Below, one piece after another: positions 38,831 to 62,100 of a DNA stretch of 64,000 bases (its first letter is position 1; every line of letters starts with the position of its first letter). The stretch comes from Asterias amurensis. Its lineage: Eukaryota; Echinodermata; Asteroidea; Forcipulatida; Asteriidae. The position numbers and the translations under genes were made by a program. The notes below the pieces were generated by a model, which saw only the letters and a program-made list of their open reading frames with translations, was not told where the DNA came from and searched no databases. The DNA is taken from positions 11,450,512 to 11,514,511 of the forward strand of contig NC_092665.1 in NCBI RefSeq assembly GCF_032118995.1, read 5' to 3'.

Positions 38831-41800
38831 ATGTCAAGCACAACACAAATTGTGGAGAAAGCAAGAGAAACTGAAGCATTTGTGAGTTGTCTTGAAGAAG
38901 AAATGACGGAAGATAGCAGGACATGCTGGTTTCAGTATGCTTTTCTGTCGAACCATGTGTGAGTATGCTGTATATTTCCAAGATTACAAAGAAAGGGAAA
39001 ATATTTCGTTTTGAAATAAAAATATTTTACGTTCTGCAACTTCTGGCCAATTCATTTCTTAAAATGCTGATTTCTTTTCTAAGCAAAAATTTAGTGGGGC
39101 ACCAGTCAAAACTATTAGTCAAAACAATGTAATCTTCATTTTATTTGGCTGGTAAACCTATTTCTGTTATGCAATACTTTCTGTGCTTATCAATTGTTTT
39201 GTGCTATACGACGACACTTCGATCACAATGGATAGGTGAATCAACTGCTGCTTGGATTGAGGCATGGCTGTCCGACAGACAACAGAGGGTGGTGGTGAAC
39301 GGGGCCCAATCGGAGTAGTCAGGAGTTAAAAGCGGTGTCCTTCAAGGTTCTGTTCTGGGCCCGATGTTGTTCATCATATACATCAACGATATTGATGAGG
39401 GTATCTTGAGTTCGTTCCTGAAGTTTGCTGACGACACAAAGGTCTTCAGAAAAGTGACAACCCCGGCAGATGCTCCAGTCTTCTTTTGGATGGCATACTC
39501 CTATCCCCTTCTTGAAGATGGGCGAGATAATTGGGACACGCCAGTCAGTCAGTTGGTAAAGTGCCTGTGACCAAGTGTTTTTTAAAGATGTTGGTCAGTA
39601 TTGGTGTAACCTCGATTGCAAATTCTCTCAATACACGAGCGGGTAGCGAAGTCAGGTCCAGTTGCCTTCCTTAACATCTAAGGACTGTAGTAGTTTGAGA
39701 ACCTCGGCATTGGTGACTTTGATTGGGACTATAGGTGGAAAGCCAGACTCCCCAAGGACGGTGTGGTATGTTGGAAGATTTTTCACGGGTGAAGACTGAC
39801 CGAAATTGTTCATTAAAAGCACCTTTGCTGTCGAAAATGATCTTGTCATCCAACTTGAAGGAAGCTGCATTACTATTTCCTGCTTTTTTGAATTTATGAA
39901 TTTCCAAAAGGACTTATTTGATTTGTTGGTATTATCTGAGAACAAGCTATTTTGGAAGGACCAGTTAGTTTTTCCTGCATTTGTTGTGCAATTGCAATTG
40001 AGAGAGAAACATGCACGGCCGACCTGCTTGAGCGCCGAACAAGTATTGGTGAGCTAAATGTTGATGTATATGTGCCTATTGCGTGCCTACTAACTTTGTT
40101 TGCTTCAGCAGCTCTATGAAATTGGGCCCAGATCTTCATGTGGGAGTGTCGTGGCTGAGCGGTTAAGAGCACCGAATTCAAACTCTGGTGTTTCTCAACA
40201 GCAGAGTGTGGGTTCGAATCCCCAGCCGCGACACTTGTGTCCTTAAGAAAGACACATAACCATTGCTTCGTTCTTCGGATGGGACGTTAATCCGTTGGTC
40301 CCTTGTGTTGTGTAAACGCATGTAAAAGAACCCAGTACACTTATCGAAAAGAGAAGGGGTTCGCCCTGGTGTTCCTGGCTGGATTGGCAGCATATTGCGC
40401 CACAGCACCTTGTAAACCATTACATGGTGCTTACGGATTAGGTCTAATATCTCAAAATCCACCCCACTCCTTGCAGTAATAATACCTGGCACTTTGTATC
40501 CTTTGGCAAAAGGCGTGTTACAAATACGGTTATTATTGTTATTTGTAGGTTGAAATGGAACTGGGCGCTGAGTGACAGTGACGTCCATGCTCTTGTAGTT
40601 AATTTTGTTATAAAGCCGAAAGTTACAATAACTTTCTGCCTATTGTGACTGTCTTTGGTGTAATTCTACCGTGCGCTCCCACATGGACTTGTATTCCACA
40701 ATGGTTGCATAGCGTTTCACAGCGTGGTTGCGGTAGGTTTACAGTGCAGAGCTGTTCCCATTAAACTTTTAGCTGCCCTGTTAAGTTACCGTGGCTGCGC
40801 GGAAGTCTTCCTCAACCTCTTTCGGCCTGTTAGTTTTACATCACGTCGCGGTAAAATGACAAGGAGGGCAGATTACCTTGCGTCTCCATTGGATTTTGTT
40901 TAAACATTACCAAGCAATTTGTTTATACATGTTCATTAAATTTTGGAGTAGTTACCAAAGGTATACTCCCAGAACTATGAGGTTCGTTCCGTTATGACAA
41001 ACCTCATAGTTCTAGAAGGAGTAGGAGTCAGGACTGAGGCAACGGAGGCGATTGTCTCCGTTTCCTCTTGCCATTGCCTTGGTGCCCTTGAGATGCTCCA
41101 GTAGAAATTTACAAGTTCCTCATAGGGTGCCCTTTACCAAAGAGAAAATGCCTTGGTGCCCTTGCCCTTTCGAAAAAGAGGCATACAGGCCTGAGGAGTA
41201 CCAAAGATATACCCTCCCTTTTGTTAATTTTCATGAATTTAAATTTTGATGGGAATTGTAATCTCGATTGTTTTTGCGTACTTGTTACAGGAAAGCTGAG
41301 TATGATGATAATATCTGTGTCGTTGGTGTTTTTGGAAAGAGCCACCGCTCCAAGGGTTTGATGTTAAATGATGTCATCAACACCAATAAGTTCCAGCACA
41401 TTAAGGTACTAGTCTAGGCTTGGCTCAGCTCAGTAGCTTCCTCCCTACCATTCACCTATGTCGACCCTGGTTCGATTTCTGCTCTGAAGCCTTGCATGTA
41501 GATCGGGTTTTCATACTATAGACCTTAAGCACATGACGTCATTTCAGTACAGCGCCCCCGCATTGAGGTCAAAAGGAGATTGTTCATTGGTCAATCTTTG
41601 TGTGTTTTGATTGTTTCGTCACCGTTTGACCTCAAAGATGGCGGCTGGATGCACCAATGCATAAGGTCTATAGACGATGTAACCTCTGACGTCACTCGAA
41701 AACCATAACACGATTCGCGCGCACCGCCGGGCAAAAGCGTTGTGTTTTGGCAGCCAGCTAGAAAGTGTATGCGATCTTACCATGACTACGTGTCTTTTTG

Positions 41801-44800
41801 CCTGCGAAACATGACGTATACAGTGTTTTGTCAACAGAGGGTGGTTTGAATGTAAACATAGGTCACAACGTCTATAAGACTCTACGTGGGCCAAACATTT
41901 TGTAACGATACATTTTCAATTTTCACTTTTTTCACGCATTTTCAACACTGGTCCTATCCCCCACACTCGTTATGGAAAATGCGCTTTCTAAATTGCCACA
42001 CCCACTCTCTGGAACAACCTTCCTGTCCACATCCGTGCCTCAACTAGACTGGAGTCATTTAAGACTGCTCTCAAAACCCACTTATTTAAATCCATCTAAG
42101 CTTGTTACAGTTTCAGCTGTTTCATCTCACTTAAAATTCTTTAATTTTTTGTTATTGCACACTTACTTTGTTAATGTCATTTTAAACAATCACTTTTTTG
42201 TTGCAGTGCTTAGAAACCCTTTTGGTTATGCGCTATATAAATGCATGTCATTATTATTGATTTATATTGTGTTTGTTGTGTAAAGTTTTGCAAGAATTGT
42301 GAAGGATTTCCTTATTTTAAAAACTTTTTAAAAAAATTTTCAAAACAAATTTGTGTTTGCTTTTGATAGGATCAGAGAGGTATCAGCCAAAAGGACACAG
42401 ATGTTGAAAATGTGAGTACGATAAAAACATGGGTGTGATCCCTGGCTGCACAGCAGCTAACAGTTGTATGGTTTCCGACTGACTGGAAGCCCTAAATATT
42501 GACTAAATCGAGAGACCATCAACAGGATTGGATAGCTCAGTTGGTAGAGTACCGGCACGTTATTAAACCAGAGGTCGTTGGTTCAAATCCTGTTCAGTAA
42601 GAACAAATTTTCAACCCCCAGTTGTTTCTGACTGGCAGCCCAAACAAAGGTATTGACACCATCGGGAGACAGTCAGCATAGAGCTAGATAGCTCAGTTGG
42701 TTGAGTTAAACCGGAGGTTAGTCTTTCAAACAGTGGGCACACTATAATAATAAAAATATAATAACAATAATTTGGGAGGCTAATCATCAGCTAAGAGCTG
42801 AATTGCGAAGGACGCAGCTACAATGTGTTCGAGAAGCAGGCATGCAAGGGCGCCTTTGGCAGCCAGCCACATCAACCCGTTATGACCACGTTTACAGCCA
42901 GAGATCAAAAGTGTTTTATTTTTCCCGAGGGAGGTTAGTCTTTCGAGCAGTGGACACACTATAATAAGAATAATATTATAACATTAGTTTAATTAATCAT
43001 CCTTACTCGCAGCTATTGCGAAGGACGCAGCTACAATGTTTTTGAGAAGCAGGCATGCAAGGGCGCCTTTGGCAGCCAGTCACATCAACCCGTTGTGACC
43101 ATGTGGAGCACAGCCAGAGATGAAAAGTGTTTAATTTTTTTTATTAAACCAGGAAGAGTTCTGAGGAAAAAAATTCATGTTATATTATAAAAGTGTGTTT
43201 TGTCATATCTTTTGTACTAGTGTAATATTGAGTGTCACTACGATGCAGAACATAAAGTCCTCTATCTGCATCTTGTGTCTTTTTACGACACCCCCATCCT
43301 ATCACGTCTCTGCAGACAAATGCAACACAACCTGTCCGATGCAGTAAGTATTACACAACCTCGCACATATTCACTTCTGTGTATCATCTATTTGCTCTCC
43401 CCTGATTCCAATAATAATATTGAAGTCTTTTATGGCGTACCAAACAAGGTACGCAAGGCGCTGAGCATATACAAACTTTCAGAAAGATAGGTTATTGCAG
43501 TGATGAATTCTGAGACCCAATTATTTTAGCCCTTTGTTAGGGTTTACATGGTGCTATAGTGCATACAGCAGCCACAGCCAGGAACACTGGGGCAAACCCC
43601 TTCTCTTTTTGATAAGTGCACTGGGTTCTTTTACATGCGTTACGTGATGGTTAAGTGTCTTGCTTAATAAGGACACAAGTGTCGCGGCTGGGGATTCGAA
43701 CCCACACTCTGCTGATCAGAAACAGCAGAGTTTGAATTCGGTGCTCTTAACCGCTCGGCCACGACACTTCCACAGTTATGTTTTGCGTCGAATGGTCGAG
43801 CGGTCAAGCGTACTGGACTCGGCAGATTGTGGGTTCGAGTCCCAGTCTTGACATTTTCCGTTGGTCCAATGTGTTGTGTAACGCATTTTAAAAACCCAAT
43901 TACACTTTGGCAGTGGCTGCTGAAGCTTGACCTTGTAAAACCCTTACATGGTGTCACACAAATGGGTCTTAAAATTCACAATTTAAAAAAAATCTGTGTG
44001 GAAGTTTAAGCTTCGTTGTTCATTTCATTTCATTTCAAAATGGTTTATTAAAACGCTGAATGGTTGGTTTGTGAACATGTGTTGTTGCAGGTAACACGGT
44101 TCAAATGACCGCAAAATAAGTAGCTCGAAAATTTAAGGCAATTTTAAGAAATTCTCCGTCATAATTTTTGTTCCATTTACAGGATTGTCATGCGTACTGG
44201 AAGGACCACAGTACAAGCCATGCCAGGGCCCTACTCTTCATGTTTTCAGTTTGTCATATCATGATGGTAAGAAAGTCAACAAAGAATTTAAGGAATATTT
44301 TAACAATAGTGGGATGCTTATGTGGCGAGTCATGGCCGAGCGGTCAAGCACACTGGTTTCAAGCGCTGGTGTTTCCGAATCCGAGTTTATTATCAACTGT
44401 GGCGTGTCGTGGCCAAGCGATCAAGCGCACTGGAGTCAAGCTCTTGTGTTTCCGGTCAGAGTTTATTAATAACTGTGGCGTGTCGTGGCCAAACTGTCAA
44501 GAGCTGCTGGACTCAAGCTTCGGTGTTTCTGAATCACAGTTTATTACCAACTGTGGCGTGTCGTGGCCAAGCGATCAAGCACACTGTAGTCAAGCTCTTG
44601 TGTTTCCGGTCAGAGTTTATTATCAACTGTGGCGTGTCGTGGCCTAGCGATCAAGCGCACTGGAGTCAAGCTCTTGTGTTTTTGGTTAGAGTTTATTATC
44701 AACAGTTGCGTGTCGTGGCCAAACTGTCGAGAGCGCTGGACTCAAGCTTCGGTGTATCTAATCAGAGTTTATTATCAACTGTGGCGTGTGGTGGCCGAGC

Positions 44801-47800
44801 GGTCAAGCGCACTGGACTCGAGCTCTGGTGTTTCCGATCGCAAAAAGGGGTTATTCAATAATGGTCTTTCTGATCTAAAGAATGTGGTGTTGAGTCCTTG
44901 TCTTGACACTTACTTGTGTTCTTTATGAAGAAACTGAAACATTGTTGCTTTGTTCATCAGGGACGTAAAGCCGTAGGTCCCGTGTGCTGTGTAACGTATT
45001 TAAAAGAACCCTGTTACACTCATTGCTAATAGAAGGGGTTTGCCCATGTGTTTCTGGCAGTGGCTACTGAATGCATCGCAACAACTTGTAAACTCTTAAA
45101 AGTTGGTACATAAATTGGTCTCATAATTCAAAAAACTTCAAAAACCTGTCTGAACAATATTATAATAATAAGCTGTTTAAGACACCTGTAGAGAAAGTGC
45201 CAGAAAAAAAATATATATTTTTGATCTTGATGATGAAAAGGAGAAAAAGTGACTGACTTTATTTTTTGATTGATTTTCCAGGTTGTTCACCCGAAGAACA
45301 CTTTTGACATCAGTTACCTGCAGCTATTTAGAGCTCTGGAGAGTTTGAGGTAAGCTGTCTGTTTGATTATCAAATCAAATTGTTATTAATACTCTGAACA
45401 TTGGGTGGTCAGTTTGGTGTAGTGGTTACTTTCTTTGCATCCCACCTCTAGGAATCTGGTTCGAACTCCACTGGGGCACTATGTGGATTGGGTTTTACCT
45501 GGCTGTGGGGAGTCTTTCCTTGATAATTCTCTTGGGTTTTCACCCACATCTAAAACTGAAACTTCCTTCCGTGTCTTCTATCAATGGGGGTTCCTGGTTA
45601 GTTCAAAGATTAAGTTAAATTTTTCTGAGATTCTTTCGCTTCACCATAACTAAATGAAATGAACTTAAATGAAATGAAGGGAAATGAAATGAAACAAAGT
45701 TGCAGGTGCATCAGACTGGGTCAGTGGTTTCTTTCCCTGCATTTTAACCTCTGTGGACCCAGGTTCGAATCCCACCCTTAGACCAGAACCTCCCTTGAGT
45801 TTTTAGTCCCTCCCTGATTCCATAGGTTTTCCACAGTTTGGGGGTTCCCTGTTTTTACAATGATTGTCTTACCGCCCTCTTGTGTTGCTTACTAGGCAGT
45901 TGCCAATATTGAATATAGACTGGGCCCCTGTCTTTATCCATAAGGATAAAGACAGACCTGCTACTCAGATCCAGTGATACCAATGGATACCATGATATCA
46001 TTGGATACACTTGGACATGAGCTTTTCATAGATGCCCAAACAGGACAATCCAATCACGTCTGCCATAGAACTTGACTGCGTATCTCTATGTGTAATGAAT
46101 GAAGGTCAAAGGTGCATGTAGGCCGTTCTCTGGCGTTATTCACGAGCCTCGAAGTGACGTCAGATGTTTAGGCTAAATTGAAGTGTGCTTTCAAACTGAT
46201 AGCTTTGATGACGACTGATGACTACAGACAACTAGAAGTGTTTTATCACCATAAACTAAAAATAACACTTTAAAATTTAAATCTGACATATAAAGATATT
46301 TTTTATTTTTAGGGAGAAGTTAATTCCCACAGTCACAAACCTCCTGAAGGAGACTCAAGTGAGTAAGGAGCTTAAAAATAATGGCCGTCTCTGCACGCCG
46401 AGGTTGCTCTTCATTTGCCAACAGGTAAGAACCACCACTTTGGGAGAAAGCTGTTTATTTGCCAAGGGGTAAACAACAACCTTTGTCATAGATAAGGTTT
46501 TAGGTGAAAATCAAGAGTGCGAAGGAAACAATATGAAGATGTTGACATTTATATTAGGAATGTTTACAACAATTATTTATGTTTATTCATCCTCAGACTG
46601 ACATGGCAGAAGATGAGTTGAACTCAAATACTTCTGTCTCTTTCTTAAAGTCCAAATACAAGGTAAGAAGCAGCTCTTTACAGTCCTACCTTGACTCTCG
46701 CTGTTGTTTGGAACTTTGGACTTGATTTGGACTTGACTATTGATGCTTGAAATACTTGATTTTTCACCTGAGACTGGACCTCAAAGCCTAGAGACTTTTT
46801 TCTTGAGACTCAACTTCAAAAGACTTGAGATAACACTTAAGATTCGACCGCAAAGACTCGATCAAATGACGTAAGACTTCGAGTGAGACTTGACCTCAAA
46901 ACACTAAAAATTTCACATGAGACTCGACCTCAAAAGAATTTAGATTTCACTTACACTCGCATACGTTCAATTTTTGTATAATTTATTACCTTTTTCCAGA
47001 GATGGTCACCACGTAAGCTTCTACAGCATTCACTTGAAGATCAGATTTATAGATTGCTTCGCAAAAGTCGTATCTTGACCAATAATTTGTAAGTAATTAA
47101 TAAACTCTTTCTACATTCATTCCTCAAATGGGTTTGAGTCCCACCCGAGTAATATGCCTGTGATTTTGTTCACAGAGCTCGGGAAAGTATTGAGTATGCT
47201 GTGGTAACACACGTCGGTGTTTATGGGTAAAACCCCAAATAATATTCTTTGTCCTTGATGCAAATTTCAACCTATTACATTCATTCTGTTTGTTAAAGGC
47301 AGTGGACACTATTGGTAATTACTCAAAATAATTATTAGCATAAAACCTTACTTTGTAACGAGTAATGGAGAGGTTGGTGGTACAAAACATTGTGAGAAAC
47401 AACTCCCTCTGAAGTGGAGTAGTTTTCGAGAAAGAAGCAATTTTCCATGAATTTGATTTTGAGACTTCAAGTTTAGAATTTGAGGTCTCGAAATCAAGCA
47501 TCTGAAAGCACACAACTTCGCTTGACAAGGGTGATTTTTTCTTTCATAGTTATCTCGCAACTCCGACGACCAATCAAGCTCAAATTTTCACAGGTTTGTT
47601 ATTTTATGCATATGTTGAGATACAGCAAGTAAGAAGACTGGTCTTTGACAATTACCAATAGTGCCACTGGCTTTAAATATACATTTTTCATTTTCGGCAT
47701 GAATGAAGACAAAATTAATAGACTAGAGGGGATATGAATCTTCTACAAACTATCAAGCTATCTAGAGATGGCGGACTCCCTATTTTGTCACTTTCTTTGT

Positions 47801-50800: not shown

Positions 50801-53800
50801 TTCAACTAGTGGTTTAAACCCACCGAGGCCTGGTTCTTTATAGTTTACCTCGACTTCGTCTCGGTAAAATTATCAAGAACCAGGCCTCGTTGGGATTAAA
50901 CCACTAGTTGAAAACCTCTTCACCACACACTTTGATTCCCTTATTTTCACAGGCCTTGCCCTTCACTCTTGAAGGGGCACAGCAATTTTCCTCTTGTGAG
51001 GGGCACTTCTATGTGGAATATTTAAGTTGTATTTGAACCTTGCAGAGGGCAACACAGCAAATTCCTGGGACATCGCGGCAATTGCTGGGTGCTGCGGATT
51101 ATTTTGAGGCCTGTTTTCAACAACTTGGGCATAATTAGCCACAGAGCTATATATATTACTCTTTATTCCACATGCAAATAAAGTTTTGTTGAAGTCTTTC
51201 AGTTGCGGACATGTTTGAGGTTTGTATTGTGAGAAACAAATGTATTTTCCCTAGAACTTAAAACTCAAAAACTATGAAGTACCGTGGCCGAGCGATTAAG
51301 AGCACCAAATTCAAACTCTGGTGTTTCTGATCAGCAGAGTGTGGGTTCGAAACCCCAGCCATGACACTTGTGTCCTTAAGCAAGACACTTAACCATATCT
51401 TTGTCCTTCGCATGGGACGTTAAGAAGTTGGTCCTGTGTGTTGTGTAACGCATGTAAAAGAACCCAGTGCACTTATCGAAAAGAGAAAGGGGTTGCCCCA
51501 GTCCCACATACCTTGCAGGAAATACTGTATGTTTCAGAGCTTTGAGACGCCCGTCGATGTATAAAGCGCTATTCGGGTGTATGAAGCGCTATACAAATAT
51601 CGGCTATTATTATTTTTTATTATCACAGCTAGTAATACTCCTGCATTTATTTGTTGTTCTTGACGACAGACGATGTAACAAAGTGCTCCCCATAGCAACC
51701 AGGACGTATCAAGAGGGTGCTCCATCTCATTATACCAGTACAGTCCATGGTAGCAGGGTAAGTATACTTGCCTAGCAGATAAGAGCACTGGACACAAGCT
51801 CTGGTGTTTTTGATCGGCAGAGTGTGGGTTTGAAACCCTGGTTGTGACACTCGAGTCCTTAAAAGCGAGACACTTAACCATGATGATTCATCCTTCAGAT
51901 GGGACGTAAAGCCGTAGATCCCGTGTGTTGTGAATGCACGTAAAAAAAAAACAGCACACTATCGCTAAGAGAAGGGGTTTGCCTTGGTGTTCCTGGTTTG
52001 ATTGGCTGCATATTGAGCCACAGCACCTTGTAAACCATCACATGGTGCTATGTAAATGAATAGGTCTCATACTTTTCTAGAACGAATGGCTTTAAAATTT
52101 TTACAAATTTAAAATATGCGTTATATTCTTACAGTTAGCACAAGCCATGAAGGTTTTCTCCCAGCACGCTCGTGGACCGGCGTTTGAGAAGTACGCTAAC
52201 CAGCTACAGGCCGAGTGCCAGCTCTTCTGGCAGAGTGGACGTCAACTCTGTGAAGTGGTCAGTTTCACCGGTCATCATTGCATTCATAAGGTACGCTCAC
52301 AGACGTCCAGAATCGTGAATATTATTTAAGTAGTATTTAAATACACAGTGGATGATACTGAATGGTCAGGCAGTAGGAGGGTTGACTGTGTACCACATAG
52401 ATGCATTCACCCAGGCCAGCATACGTGTAGTTTATTCATCGTTCAAAACCACATTGGATAATATTAAATGATGGAGGGTTAATGCTGTTTGTTAGAAAGT
52501 CCTGGGTTCTATGACTATAAAGGAAGTGTATATTTTTTGGATAAGCCATTTGGGAGTTAGTACCACATAGATGCATTCACCCAATGATATCATATTGCAG
52601 GCTGGCAAAGTTTATCCATCATTCAAAACCAGAGTGGAAGATATTAAATGGTCAGACAGTAGGAGGGTTAATACTGTTTGTTAGAAAGTCTTGGGTTCTA
52701 TGACTAGACAGGAAGTGTACACTTTTTCAATAAGCCATTTGGGAGTTAGATTTGAATACTGTCTGGTACAATGACTTGCTTAGTCACAGTGTACCGCTTA
52801 CATTTGAAATCCTTAGACTATAGAGACATTTGCATAGCCTTTGCATAGCAACCACCAGGGCCCAATTTCATAGCACAAAAATTTGCTTAGCATGAAGTTT
52901 TTGCCTTGATAAAAACAGGATTACCAACCAAATTTCTCTGTGATTTTCATGATAAGCAAACAACAACTGAATACCAGTAACAAGCAATATGCAACAAATG
53001 GAAATTTGGAAGGTAATCCTGTTTTTGTCAAGAGAGAAATTTCATGCTAAGCAAATTTTCGTGCTTAGCAGCTCTATGAAATTGGGCCCAGATGAGCAAA
53101 CTCCATTGTGGTACCATTGTGTCATGCACAACCATTCAGAATTGTGTATGGGTATTCACCGTCTCTTATGTAACTACGAAAAAAAGCTTGCCCCTAATCA
53201 TGTGGCATAGCAACTGTCTCAATAGTCTTAGGATTGGACCCTTCCCATGAAACATGCTAATCACATTCACGCATGCGTACAGACCCTGTTGGTTGGCAAA
53301 CGCCGTAGAGTTGTGCACTAAGCAGACGCGCAATCGCGTCTGCGTCACGCACCCATTAGCCGTGTACAAAACAGCGCGATGTTCCCTCATTTTGCCAACC
53401 AAAACATTAGTGCGTACGCGCTATGTGCAATTTACATATTTTATGGGAAGGGTCTATTCACCCGAACAATATTCAAATCTAACGCACAAACGGCTAATTG
53501 ACCCCTGACCATTGACCCTTTGCTTTTCCCAGCTTCATCTCTTACCGGAGAGTGTGAGCGACCCTGAGCGAGAGGCCATCATACCCAGAATGCCTCACAC
53601 CAATAATAACCGCACCCCATGCGCTTGTAACTGTGGGAAGACGGTGACGCAACGAGACGACCCATTCACCCTCAAGGTAACCAAGTACGCATTCTATATC
53701 TGATACTCCATAACTAAGAATGTTTGAGCAGGAAACCAGACTTTCTGCTTCTTCTCACCCATTCACTCTGTCTTTGGTGAGATTTAGAACAAAGAGCGAT

Positions 53801-56800
53801 TCCAACAGCTTTATTCCTTGTACGGCATCTCTTTGGAACTCATCGCCTAGTGCATGTTTCCCTCAATCCTACAATCGAGACTGTTCTACAATCTAAAAAA
53901 TCTCTGCAGAAAAATGTACAGACTTTATTGTTGAAATGTGAGGCCATTGAATGATTGCATTTGAAAGGTATTAAAGGCAGTGTACACTATTGGTAATTAC
54001 CCAAAATAATTTTAAGCATAAAACCTTTCTTGGTAATGAGTAATGGGGGGGAGGTTGATGGTATAAAACATTGTGAGAAACGACTCCCTCTGAAGTGCCA
54101 TAGTTTTCAAGAAAGAAGTAATTTTCCACGAATTTGATTTCGAGACCTAAGATTTAGAACTTGAGGTCTCGAAATCAACCATCTAAACCCACACAATTTT
54201 GTGTGACAAGGGTGTTTTTTTCTTTCATTATTATCTCGCAACTTCGATGACCGATTGAGCTCAAATTTTCATAGGTTAGTTATTTTATGAATATTGTTGA
54301 GATACACCAACTGTGAAGGCTAGTCTTTGACAACTACCAATAGTGTCCACTGCCTTTAAACACAGTGTCTTTTTACAATGTTTTAACCCAAGTATTTTGT
54401 TACATATAACTTGTAACTGCCTTGTAGCCAGTGATAACACCCAAGTATACGGTACAATCTAGGACGCAACAGTCAGTTTCCCTCGTGGTTAAAAATATAT
54501 AAAATATAAAATGAGGAATGACGCTCTATTCCACAGCTTGCCAACTACGACTTCTTCCACGGAATGGAAGATCGATGCTGCAGCAAGCTGAGACATCACA
54601 AGTTCCTGCTGTACGAACCGATACGCCGTGATTCCAAGATACTGCTGGCCATGGCAACCCAAGAGCAGTCCAAGGGTTGGGAGAAGGAGGGGGCCGTCAA
54701 ACCTGAGAACAAGGAGGATGGACAGAGCAAGATGACGGCGGAGAAGTTAAAGAATGGTGAGTTTGAGCATGTTCGCTGTAAACTGACAAACCTGTAGAAG
54801 TTTGAGATCAGTCGACCATCTTGGTCAAGAGAGAATAGTGAAAAACCAATTACAACTTTTGCATTTAATCGATGCCAAAACAAAAATGAATAAACCGCTT
54901 ACTGAGCGATAAACTCCAAATGCGAAATTAGACTATTTGTTTCTCATCAAATATGGCGTTTCAGACAGAAATATTGCAAGGGATGTTTTCTACTACCATC
55001 ATCATTAGACCGTTTAAGATTTATGTAAATCTGTGATCTTCAAGATTTTTGTTTCTAACCAAGTCTTATTTTTTGACATTATTTGACGTTTTAGATTCCG
55101 CTGCGAGTGTTCCTAACACCTTCAGCCCAGCTCTAAGTCTCGGCCAGTCAGGTGACATGCTATCACATGATGCACACAGTGGGTTGCCAGGCAACAGCTG
55201 CACTGCTAGTCTACTCAGCATGGGTGACGGAGCACAGGAAACCAGTAGAGGTAACTGCTTAAAAAAGTTTATCGCAAATAGCAAAATATCAAGAGAGGGC
55301 GCTGTTGAACCCACACAAAGATATGGGCCATGCGAGCGCACTCCGTGCATGACAACATACATCGCTGTAGCAAATGCCCCCTCTGCCTACCCATAACGCA
55401 TTGCGGTTCTGAGTTGCAACAAACCTTATGGAAAAGTACACCTTTGGGTTTTTGGAACCGTTTGATTGTTTTAATCCATACTAATTAAGATGTAGATTTA
55501 TACAATCAAACTAACATGTGAAAAGTTTCATTTTAAAAGGTTGTGTTTTTGAGATGTTAATGTAAATCTGGAGCAGTTATGTCCATGCTGGAAAAATAAA
55601 CCCCAATAGGAATACACATAACTCTAAGAAGCATTATTGGTAACCCTGGCTCAAATCCCGCTGTCTGTGGACAATTTTTCTTTGTTTAGCCAAAAATGTC
55701 ATCTGGAAACTGTATAACAAAACTTGATACTCGTTGTCGCCACGTTGGGCGGTGCTGTGCAGCCCTGCCTAGGACTCACAATTTTTGCCCAGCATTCTGA
55801 GCAAAAAACATTGTGCTGCCCAGCACAGATTTCAAAGTATTGTCCACTGTGCATTGATCTGAGACACAGCTAATTATAAGGAGTATCAAATGTCAAGAGA
55901 AAGAACACAGTTAAAAGGCCATTCAACTTATTGCATGGCCCCATAACACGAACAGTTGCCCCACTTTAGCAATTTTTGCCCCCATAATCCAACATGAATA
56001 ATTTTGTCGATCCGCTCGCCCTTGGTGGATTTCGGAAACGTTGGATTTATCGCCCACCACTTAAATTGGTCTAGTTTCTGGTGTAGACTGTATCCAAACT
56101 CTGACATAAAGTTCAGCTAAGCTTGCCTACCAGGAAATGCTTGCGCGTAAAACATCCCTCTTTATAAAAATAAGTACGTCCTTCCAGTCGATGGCACAGA
56201 AATTTGATGCACACTTAGATGTTAATTATTTAATAAAAAGTAATCTTTTGTGTGCAAAATGACTGAAAATAAAGCACTCAGAAAATATACTTTCAGGGTC
56301 TATTTTTATGTCATAATAAAATGTACACTGGAAATTTATTATTTAACAAATGAATTATGTTTTTTAGAGTCTGCTTAACGGATACTAAGGTAATAAAAAG
56401 AATGGACAACCGTATTGGGGATTAGTTGATGTGTATCTATTTTTATTTTATTTTAGGATTAGATAATCCAGTAATCTCAAAGGATTAAAGGATTTATTAA
56501 AGTGGTGATGATAAAAATAATGTTGACGTTGTTTAAGTTTTGTTTGAACACTAAACAAACACAATAGTTGACTCTTGTCGCTGACAAGATCGCTGGGACT
56601 GGCCAACTTGCCTCTTTATAACAGGAATGTTTTTGTAAGAGGACAGTAAGACAAAGAAGCAAAAAGCAGAAATAAGATTCGCAACTTCAGAGTATACTCT
56701 TTATTTAACAGTGCTCTTTGTTTATACGCCTGTTTCAGTTATTACTTGTTCATCTTTTGTCCTAAATATTTTGTCTTCTTTTTCAATAGAGATACATTCA

Positions 56801-59410
56801 GTAATCTTAAAGCGAAAGAAGTCATGTTCATGCCCGGTGCTTAAATCTGTTAGCTTCTTCATCCTTTCATCTTAATTTTCTTCTTTCTCAGTAGGGAACA
56901 TTTTTACTTGATGTACAAAACTCACCCCAGTGTTATGTGAAAGTTATATTTTCGCCTAGACTTAAAACTGTTACCATAACTTGTTCATCTCTTGTCCTAT
57001 TTTGTTCTTCTTCTTAACAGAGAAATGTCATTACTTGACATACAATCTCATCCCAGTTTTACAAGAAAGTTATCATTATGCCTGGGCTTAAATCTGTTAC
57101 TGTTACTTGTTCATCTTTCGTCTTAATTTGTCTTCTTTCTCAACAGAGAAATGTCATTACTTGATGTACAATCTCAACATGGTTTTACAAGGATACTATC
57201 TTTATGCCTGGGGCTTTTAATAGACTATTTACTTGTTCATCTTTCATTCTATTTTGTCTTCTTTCTCAATAGAGAAATGTCATTACTTGATGTACAATCT
57301 CAACCCAGTTTTACAAGAAAGTTCATTTTTATGCCTGGGTCTTAAGATTGTTTACTTGTTCATCTTTCATCCTATTTTGTCTTCTTTCTCAACAGTGAAA
57401 CATCATAATCTTACCCAGTTTTACAAGAAAGCCAACTTTATGCTCGGGCTTAAAAAACTCTATCATGTTATTTTGTCTTCTTTCTAAATAGAGAAACGCC
57501 AGTACTTGAGAGAGACGTCAACGGCGGAGTATCTTCAAGGCATGATGTGCTCAACCTCCCCAAGAAGCTTACTGCCTCTCTTCTCATCCTGGTCTTTATT
57601 ATGTCTCGGGAAAGCTTCCTCGTACAACCCCAGCAAAGGTGAGAAGCAGCAGCATTTTGTACCCTTAAATTTTCTTTTCATTATAATGTTTTCCCTCTCA
57701 GACAATAGTGCAGGGTTGTTTATTATGTCTCGGGAAAGCTTCCTCGTACAACCCCAGCAAAGGTGAGAAGCAGCAGCATTTTGTACCCTTAAATTTTCTT
57801 TTCATTATAATGTTTTCCCTCTCAGACAATAGTGCAGGGTTGTGATCTGCCGAGATCTTATTTTTCCCTGGTAACATGAAAAGTAATGTATAACGTTATA
57901 CATCACCTCGATCATTCCCACCGTTGCTTGTTTCCAGCGCCCAGTTGGATATTATGAATAGGCCTGGGTATGAGCAGAGCATGGGTATGAGGTTGTAATT
58001 ACGCTGGTACTAGGTAAACTGATAAACATTCCGCTACGTTGTGCCGTCAGGAACAGTGAAGCAACATTTTGTTTTTCTTTTTAAAAGCAATGCCATTGTT
58101 GTTTACGTTTGCAAGTGTTATCGGTTGCTCATAATTCAATTGTGTGTTGTTTGTTTCCTCCTGCAATATTATTTCTGTGGCACAAAAATCAATTGTTGCA
58201 CACTGTGACCGGGTCCATGATGAACCATTTCACCTGACATCATATTTTCTTGTAACGGATTGCTGCTTTTTAATTTTTATTGTTTTATGTTTTGTGTTGT
58301 GCATAGAGGCTCCTGCATATGCGCTATATAAATTATGTATCGTATTATTCATTATTATTAATATTTATTTATCTACTTATTCGTAACCATGTTGTTCTTG
58401 TCATTGGCTTAAAGTTTGATATAAAGATAAATTTGTTTATTTCAGCAATTTTAATATTCTTTAATAATTTAAACGCATATTTTGATCGTATAATAGTTTT
58501 TTATGTCTCCTTATGTGACTGGATCAACAGGCTTCCCAGCTACGGTGTCTAAGTTTGCTTTTGTAGAACTAGGGTTGTTTTGTAAACTCTAGTGCCTGGA
58601 TTGTTTCTTTTGGTTTTATTTGTTATTTATTCATTCACATCAGTCTTATTGTTTAAGAAGGATAATAAGTATGTAATTTCCAACTTTTAATAACTAAATT
58701 AAAAAGAAAATGATTTAGTTTTTAGCAAACTTTTGTCATTGTTAGTACTTTTTCCTTGATCTATTGTTATATAATTCTGAATGGATCACCTTTGTTGAAT
58801 ATGGTTGTTAATCAGAAAATAACCATTAATTGCTTCCATGCGTATAGGAGCAAAAATTATGAATAATAAGTGATTCCCATGCATTTGTACTAAAAGGTGG
58901 GTGGACTTCCTGATATTTGTTTATTTTGTTTGGTTCACTGAGTATAGGACTTGACCAGCCAGGTTTCCTGAGGGATTCAAATTTCCTGCTTCCATGGGAT
59001 ATTCCCATTAACCAAGAATTTGAATAATAAGAACCATGAATGGCTACCCTTCATATAGGAGTAAATTTGATCAGTAATAAGTGACTCTTGGGCTTTGTAC
59101 TGGTGCGATCAGTGAGCAGATTTCCTGAATTTTGCTTTTATTTTTTGTTTCGGTCACTGATTTCAGGACTTGACCAGCCAGGTTTCTTGAGGGATTCCAA
59201 CTTCCTACTTCCATGGGATATTCCCATTCCCAAAGGAAGTGCACTGGATCCATCGTGGCCTGTACCAAGTGAGTCTGCCAGCGGGGGTGGCCGGAAAGGT
59301 GGCAAACACCGCGACAAGAGGGGACACAAAGGTATGAGAACAACTAATCTACAAAGTAATAAGGATGAGAAACTTTAGACTGAGACTGGTTTTTTTCTTT
59401 GGATATATTA

Positions 59411-59444
<34 letters not shown>

Positions 59445-61980: not shown

Positions 61981-62100
61981 AGGGCTAGATAGTTCAGTTG
62001 GTAGAGCGCCGGCACGCTAAACCGGAGGTCGTTGGTTCAAATCCCGCTCTAGTCAATTTTTCTTTGTTCAACCCAAAATCATTTATAAATAAAAACAAAA
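61981..62100 (+). mobile_element. SINE, family SB
   Basis: GGGCTAGATAGTTCAGTTGG, GTTGGTTCAAATCCCGCTCT and tail TTTGTTCAACCCAAAATCAT. GGCTAGA and TCTAGTC can form a seven-pair acceptor-like stem, so the tRNA ancestry is still visible. A tail fragment is also at 1086-1130. Confidence 0.7.

What the first reader, a model, noticed from the sequence alone, without database searches (positions are those of the whole stretch)
58820..59331. Second copy of SMG8 exon 19 differs only by synonymous changes
58948-59010 repeats the first 63 nt of exon 19. I count four differences (TTCCTG/TTCTTG, TCA/TCC, AAT/AAC, CTG/CTA); all keep the amino acid, while the duplicated intron around it has diverged strongly with indels. 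This suggests protein-level constraint on the copy or gene conversion. After the shared part it reads NQEFE and two TAA codons, so its use gives a truncated SMG8 or an NMD target. That would be an autoregulatory poison or alternative last exon in an NMD factor. Alternative: the constrained true exon took all the changes and the copy is a slow-decaying relic.
Basis: partly seen in the sequence, partly recalled or inferred. Interest (0 to 1): 0.75.

Follow-up and report, generated by a model that had tools for sequence, protein, structure and literature searches.

The report
Partial exon copy in starfish SMG8
A stretch of a starfish gene was copied head to tail into the neighbouring intron, and the exon part of the copy still spells the same 21 amino acids, but its splice signal looks weak and nothing shows that it is used, so it is most likely an oddly well preserved relic rather than a regulatory switch.

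Summary
The window is Asterias amurensis; the gene is SMG8 (22 coding exons). In detail: 58948-59009 repeats the first 62 nt of exon 19 (59167-59331) with 4 differences, all synonymous, inside a tandem repeat whose intron part differs at 33 of 129 aligned positions. If copy and intron share one age and the copy is free to decay, zero amino-acid changes has P about 0.0015. Synonymous divergence (4 of about 16.5 sites) equals intron divergence. This is an outlier, but one picked for being striking. Against use: the copy's acceptor scores below 20 of 21 real SMG8 acceptors, and a better-scoring extra AG 5 nt upstream gives an immediate stop; no donor was copied; two intron-derived TAA codons follow; no truncated A. 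amurensis form is named among 120 listed proteins. A 22-nt piece of intron repeat after the copy shows more than one rearrangement, so intron and exon parts need not share one age. Best reading: a non-functional tandem-duplication relic in a repeat-prone gene. Not excluded: a truncated SMG8 lacking most of the region that restrains SMG1. RNA reads and other starfish genomes would decide; neither could be reached.

The parts
58818..59009 (+). First unit of the tandem repeat: intron 18 part (58818-58947) plus the copied 62 nt of exon 19
   Evidence: Self-alignment 58818-59016 / 59029-59235, 76%; unit alignment
58948..59009 (+). Copy of the first 62 nt of SMG8 exon 19; 4 synonymous differences
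   Evidence: Codon comparison; tblastn of A. amurensis SMG8 P0001
58946..58947 (+). AG of the copy's acceptor (exon start 58948): weak, PWM 1.31 against 7.16 for the true exon 19 site
   Evidence: PWM from the 20 other SMG8 acceptors
58941..58942 (+). Extra AG (exon start 58943), absent at the same place before the true exon; PWM 5.45; use gives a stop after one codon
59010..59031 (+). 22-nt remnant after the copy, like the intron part of the unit; supplies NQEFE and the two TAA codons
   Evidence: 19 nt of it (59013-59031) match 58851-58870; none of 2000 shuffles scored as high; the exon 19 continuation does not match (P 0.17)
59029..59228 (+). Second unit: intron part (59029-59166) plus start of the true exon 19
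59167..59331 (+). True SMG8 exon 19 (165 nt, phase 1 at both ends)
   Evidence: Only exon chain found that reproduces P0001 exactly, phases
57492..57638 (+). SMG8 exon 18 (147 nt)
56741..57500 (+). Tandem array, period about 126 nt, carrying copies of the exon 18 acceptor and, in the best-kept units, the start of exon 18
57595..57842 (+). Exact 124-nt tandem duplication spanning the end of exon 18 and its donor; second donor after 57762
   Evidence: splice outcome

Best explanation
A local tandem duplication of about 190-210 nt, later rearranged at least once more, copied the end of intron 18 and the first 62 nt of exon 19 of Asterias amurensis SMG8 into intron 18. The copy is a relic without a function in the mRNA: its splice acceptor has weakened, it has no donor, and it runs into intron-derived stop codons. 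The real exon at 59167 is the one used. That the exon part kept its 21 amino acids while the intron part diverged by about a quarter is, on this reading, a chance outlier, helped by the exon part possibly being younger than the intron part (multi-step repeat turnover) and by the real exon being barred from amino-acid changes. Shown: the copy, its divergence, the stops, the low acceptor score, the extra rearrangement. Inferred: absence of use, and the order of events.
For: Acceptor at 58948 scores 1.31, below 20 of 21 real SMG8 acceptors (leave-one-out) and matched or beaten by 21.5% of 3654 AGs in the window; it ranks 28th of 77 AGs between 57660 and 59300; a competing AG at 58943 scores 5.45 and leads to an immediate stop. 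No donor was copied; the best GT inside the copy-to-exon stretch scores 4.31, below 19 of 21 real donors, and lies after the stops. Frame: NQEFE then TAA TAA, from intron-like sequence. The 22-nt remnant 59010-59031 matches another part of the intron unit, so more than one event shaped the array. The region is repeat-prone: 12 clusters of nearby repeats in 64 kb, two of them lying over exons 18 and 19. Among the 120 proteins listed of 171 found, A. amurensis is named once, for the 933-aa full-length protein (names are cut short there, many rows have none, and the entries are 90% clusters, so a truncated member could be hidden).
Against: Zero amino-acid differences is unlikely for a free copy of the same age as the intron: P 0.0015 integrating over the intron distance; 0.034, 0.007, 0.0007 and 0.00005 at distances 0.15, 0.22, 0.33 and 0.45, the interval from the intron being 0.22-0.45; 0.003 and 0.0012 with the last 50 or 60 intron columns. 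Even if the exon part is younger, four out of four synonymous has P about 0.014-0.023. Synonymous divergence equals intron divergence, which speaks for equal age. The intron distance comes from a gapped alignment that minimises mismatches, so it is rather too low than too high. The splice-site matrix is crude: 4 of 77 AGs in and around intron 18 outscore the true exon 19 acceptor, and one real acceptor (exon 22, -0.4) scores below the copy's.
Confidence: 0.7

Rival explanations
1. The copy is translated: splicing 57638 to 58948 gives a 742-aa SMG8 ending ...PWDIPINQEFE, without the last 196 residues (counterpart of human 803-991), and this protein is under selection. Because the C-terminal part of SMG8 restrains SMG1, such a form could raise UPF1 phosphorylation; if its mRNA is itself an NMD target it would accumulate only when NMD is weak, closing a feedback loop.
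For: No amino-acid change with synonymous divergence equal to intron divergence; simulation: a constrained copy gives exactly this outcome with P 0.20 against 0.0003 for a free copy. C-terminal truncation of SMG8 is reported to hyper-activate SMG1 (introduction of PMC8592573, citing earlier work), and SMG8 728-991 binds the SMG1 insertion domain (same paper; passages). The copy ends where the predicted model turns disordered (residues 737-777 below pLDDT 50).
Against: Low-scoring acceptor with a better AG just upstream; no truncated A. amurensis form named in the list; the stop lies upstream of further introns, so NMD is expected; strands 702-708 and 731-735 would lose the later strands of the C-terminal region (mean pLDDT only 58.3).
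Confidence: 0.07
2. Gene conversion or later re-duplication refreshed the exon part from the true exon, so that it is younger than the intron part; all changes since then happen to be synonymous, some of them on the true exon.
For: Patchy identity; extra rearrangement in the array; exon mismatch 4 of 62 against 33 of 129.
Against: Synonymous sites are as diverged as the intron; joint probability of the outcome at most 0.004 at the four ages tried.
Confidence: 0.14
3. The copy is kept at the nucleotide level, for example as a decoy acceptor and enhancer stretch that tunes splicing of intron 18, and the four changes fell on the true exon, where only synonymous ones survive.
For: Would give few changes, all synonymous, without translation of the copy. 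The real exon 18 acceptor is likewise preceded by acceptor copies, six of which score higher than it, so competing acceptors are a theme of this gene.
Against: The acceptor, the very element a decoy needs, is a part that has changed for the worse; no polarisation of the four changes was possible because no outgroup DNA could be reached.
Confidence: 0.06
4. Autoregulatory poison exon: use of 58948 brings in a stop and sends SMG8 mRNA to NMD, with no role for the protein.
For: Stops in frame; SMG8 mRNA rises after NBAS depletion in human cells (PMC3783168, passages), so SMG8 can be part of NMD feedback.
Against: Predicts conservation of splice signals and no care for amino acids; the opposite is seen. 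The NMD-inducing features that passage names for many NMD-factor mRNAs are long 3' UTRs and uORFs.
Confidence: 0.03

Closest known systems
Intronic tandem duplication relics and partial exon duplications (general genome feature, from general knowledge)
   Same: Head-to-tail copy of an intron-exon boundary, incomplete exon, in-frame stops, weak splice site
   Different: The exon part has only synonymous differences, unusual for a relic
Autoregulatory poison exons (Smndc1, PMC11357089, and RBM39, PMC10477243; title and start of abstract seen in the listing)
   Same: Stop-bearing alternative sequence in the gene of an RNA-processing factor
   Different: Smndc1's is titled conserved across kingdoms and RBM39's inclusion is reported; here no donor, a low-scoring acceptor, no evidence of use or conservation
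NMD factor feedback loop (PMC3783168, passages)
   Same: SMG8 mRNA is among those that rise when NBAS is depleted
   Different: That passage names long 3' UTRs and uORFs as NMD-inducing features of many NMD-factor mRNAs
Tandemly duplicated, mutually exclusive exons (general knowledge)
   Same: Neighbouring copies of one exon
   Different: The copy lacks 103 of 165 nt of the exon and its donor, so it cannot replace exon 19

Membership tests
Poison exon | In-frame premature stop upstream of a later exon junction | tested here: met
   NQEFE, TAA TAA, with true exons 19-22 downstream
Poison exon | Functional acceptor (and donor, if a cassette) | tested here: inconclusive
   Acceptor PWM 1.31, below 20 of 21 real sites but above one; better AG 5 nt upstream; no copied donor. 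A cassette is not met; use as an extended exon 19 cannot be excluded by a score
Poison exon | Isoform seen in RNA, raised on NMD inhibition | not testable with these tools
   No RNA reads at hand
Poison exon | Conservation across species | not testable with these tools
   Only proteins, no DNA, of other starfish were reached
Tandem-duplication relic | Head-to-tail homologous unit that includes flanking intron | tested here: met
   58818-59016 against 59029-59235
Tandem-duplication relic | Unconstrained decay of the coding part | tested here: inconclusive
   0 amino-acid changes: P 0.0015 if same age as the intron, about 0.02 if the exon part is younger; chosen after the fact, so it counts against but does not exclude
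SMG8 (Smg8_Smg9, PF10220) | Whole-protein match of the gene | tested here: met
   P0001, encoded exactly by 22 exons of this window, matches PF10220 at E 2.9e-255; human SMG8 in PDB 6l54_B matches exons 18-22
Mutually exclusive duplicated exon | Copy with both splice sites and full exon | tested here: not met
   62 of 165 nt, no donor

The most novel reading that the evidence does not exclude
The starfish gene makes a second, C-terminally truncated SMG8 through the copied exon start. Lacking the counterpart of human residues 803-991, most of the region that restrains the SMG1 kinase, it would act as an NMD booster; because its mRNA carries an early stop, it would accumulate only when NMD is weak. 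That would be a self-correcting loop in which an NMD target encodes the protein that switches NMD back on.
Probability: 0.04. Interest if true: 0.85.

Novelty: new member of a known kind. Interest (0 to 1): 0.22.

Why it matters
If the copy is a relic, it is an ordinary product of tandem repeat turnover in an echinoderm gene and a caution that 'all changes synonymous' over 21 codons is weak evidence by itself. If it were used, SMG8 would gain an isoform without most of its inhibitory part, and NMD would have a feedback loop acting through a truncated protein, which could be tested directly.

Tried and rejected
Considered and set aside. (1) Exon homology running on past 59009 (AACCAAG against CCCAAAG), which would bring amino-acid changes: the tail matches intron unit sequence far better, so the end at 59009 is kept; it is still partly a choice made after seeing the data. 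(2) A retrocopy or paralogue as donor: the 512-nt DNA query found one place in the whole genome, itself; the protein search for paralogues did not complete. (3) Recent gene conversion as the whole answer: synonymous sites are too diverged. (4) An alternative last exon: from 58941 on, ATTAAA first occurs at 59440 and AATAAA at 59541, both beyond the true exon 19. (5) In-frame use of exon 18 array acceptors: the four spliced in silico (57021, 57147, 57273, 57396) all meet a TAG just before the true exon. In one search the two printed scores for the proximal and distal exon 18 donors (-7.25) are wrong because I gave a coordinate two bases off; the valid score for that donor is the leave-one-out 9.7. 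The statistics use few sites (62 exon, 129 intron), assume a uniform neutral rate, and were run on a finding chosen for looking striking; no correction for that choice was possible. The structure model is low in confidence (mean pLDDT 58.3) and is used only for where order ends. No fold search was run.

Full report
What the window is. The window lies at C18:11450512-11514511 of a 491,506,623-base genome in 23 contigs. Contig lengths C1 38,009,675 and C9 23,750,475 equal the maximum scaffold and scaffold N50 of the Asterias amurensis assembly in PMC10625585 (passages; its total of 491,537,102 in 22 scaffolds differs by about 30 kb), and C18 (17,110,720) equals the contig length given for P0001, 'nonsense-mediated mRNA decay factor SMG8-like [Asterias amurensis]'. 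A search over splice sites near the tblastn ends gives one chain of 22 exons, 38903 to 61479, that reproduces P0001 (933 aa) exactly. P0001 matches Pfam Smg8_Smg9 at 2.9e-255, and exons 18-22 match human SMG8 (PDB 6l54_B, E 1.5e-65).

The observation. The copy 58948-59009 and exon 19 59167-59228 share 58 of 62 nt. With the leading G from exon 18 both read GLDQPGFLRDSNFLLPWDIPI; the four differing codons are CTG/TTG, TCA/TCC, AAT/AAC and CTG/CTA. The intron parts 58818-58947 and 59029-59166 align with 33 mismatches in 129 columns and 10 gap columns. In 200 shuffled controls of the intron alignment the identity had a mean of 63% and a maximum of 78%, because gaps are free to move, so the 74% identity of the intron part is not strong on its own; the homology is secured by co-linearity with the exon part (self-BLAST of the whole unit, E 7e-35).

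Is it more than chance? Exon against intron mismatch: Fisher P 0.0015. No 62-column window in the intron part has fewer than 13 mismatches. The true exon is constrained, which explains part of this. I simulated two branches, the true exon barred from amino-acid changes and the copy either free or barred, with the distance drawn from the intron data. Free copy: mean 3.1 synonymous and 7.8 other differences, P(no amino-acid difference) 0.0015, P(no amino-acid difference and 4 synonymous) 0.0003, P(4 or fewer differences in all) 0.022. Barred copy: P(no amino-acid difference and 4 synonymous) 0.20. If the exon part is younger (conversion), P(all synonymous given 4) is 0.014-0.023 and the joint probability at most 0.004 at the four ages tried. 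With the near-exon intron rate (11 of 50 columns, or 15 of 60) P is 0.003 or 0.0012; a distance of 0.15, below the interval 0.22-0.45, would give 0.034. Of 68 nearby repeat pairs in 264 kb (window plus 20 random stretches), 19 have at least 150 alignment columns and at most 92% identity; several of these rows share an array. This pair is the most uneven of the 19, permutation P 0.0135, next 0.055. So it is an outlier, but the smallest of 19 and chosen for being striking.

Anatomy that speaks against use. A PWM from the other SMG8 acceptors scores the true exon 19 site 7.16, the copy's site 1.31 and the AG 5 nt upstream 5.45; 20 of 21 real sites score above 1.31 in leave-one-out, one (exon 22, -0.4) below. 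The matrix is crude: 4 of 77 AGs between 57660 and 59300 outscore the true acceptor; the copy's ranks 28th. In silico splicing to 58948 gives a 742-aa product ending PWDIPINQEFE; splicing to 58943 gives a stop after one new codon. The copy ends after 62 of 165 nt and has no donor; the best GT between the copy and the true exon scores 4.31 where 19 of 21 real donors score higher. The tail 59010-59031, which carries the stops, matches 58851-58870 in the intron unit (0 of 2000 shuffles as good) and not the continuation of exon 19 (P 0.17). This means that more than one event shaped the array, and the intron and exon parts of the two units need not have the same age, which is the weak point of the constraint argument.

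The same gene shows how such copies arise. Upstream of exon 18 lies an array of about 126-nt units (56741-57500) with acceptor copies; the three best-kept copies of the exon 18 start match 15 of the first 19 nt and read EKCHYL where the exon reads EKRQYL, so they have amino-acid changes. These are an internal example of free decay, though a short one. Over the end of exon 18 lies an exact 124-nt duplication (57595-57718, 57719-57842). In the window there are 12 clusters of repeats at less than 800 nt spacing, covering 6.4 of 64 kb; three reach an exon by the overlap count (13, 18, 19), of which exon 13 lies in the span between two repeat arms rather than in a repeat.

Age. I aligned P0001 with 17 others of the 120 listed SMG8 proteins; none of the 17 has the same 21 residues; Acanthaster and Patiria differ at 3 and 6 of 21 in the shared columns. 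The copy matches the A. amurensis form exactly, so the exon part was probably copied (or refreshed) after the split from those lineages.

What use would mean. In human SMG8 the copy corresponds to residues 782-802; a product cut there lacks 803-991. The SMG8 728-991 fragment binds the SMG1 insertion domain, and C-terminal truncation of SMG8 is reported, in that paper's introduction from earlier work, to hyper-activate SMG1 (PMC8592573, passages). SMG8 mRNA rises on NBAS depletion in human cells (PMC3783168, passages). So a truncated form could matter, and it is the only functional reading in which amino-acid constraint on the copy makes sense. A poison exon would not be selected for its amino acids. 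In a predicted model of low confidence the ordered part ends at 736 and resumes at 778; strands 702-708 and 731-735 precede the gap.

Literature searched. One search for SMG8 with autoregulation and feedback (27 papers, 12 listed), one for exon duplication with NMD terms (7 papers) and one for poison exons with autoregulation (79 papers, 8 listed) showed no listed title on an SMG8 exon copy; I did not read beyond the passages named, so this is no proof that none is in print.

Verdict. I hold a relic of multi-step tandem duplication most likely (0.7), conversion or a younger exon part next (0.14), a translated truncated isoform at 0.07, a nucleotide-level splicing element at 0.06, a plain poison exon at 0.03. 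These are judgements, not computed values.

Noticed in passing
window 56741-57500: Array of about 126-nt units upstream of exon 18 with acceptor copies; six of them (56790, 56895, 57021, 57147, 57273, 57396) score 8.6-12.0, above the real exon 18 acceptor (7.16). The four spliced in silico (57021, 57147, 57273, 57396) all meet a TAG just before exon 18, so their use would give a stop. A better candidate for competing splicing than the exon 19 copy.
   Followed up: partly
window 57595-57842: Exact 124-nt tandem duplication of the end of exon 18 with its donor; use of the second donor shifts the frame, with a stop at codon 760. Recent, possibly polymorphic.
   Followed up: partly
window 44321-44839: Intron 5 array, about 7 units of 76 nt (also fits 154 and 230), whose unit resembles a tRNA A-box region by eye (recalled motif); neither ARAGORN nor Rfam at gathering score called it.
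   Followed up: no
window 61983-62055: tRNA-Ser(GCT) gene about 500 nt downstream of the SMG8 stop, same strand.
   Followed up: no
window 39319-39567: Open frame in intron 1 with a weak reverse transcriptase match (RVT_1, E 1.5e-05, 25.2 bits, below the curated cut-off 29.6): probably a retroelement fragment.
   Followed up: no
window 51277-51497 and 51760-51983: Repeat pair (76%) on either side of exon 13, the second arm starting 3 nt after its end at 51757.
   Followed up: no
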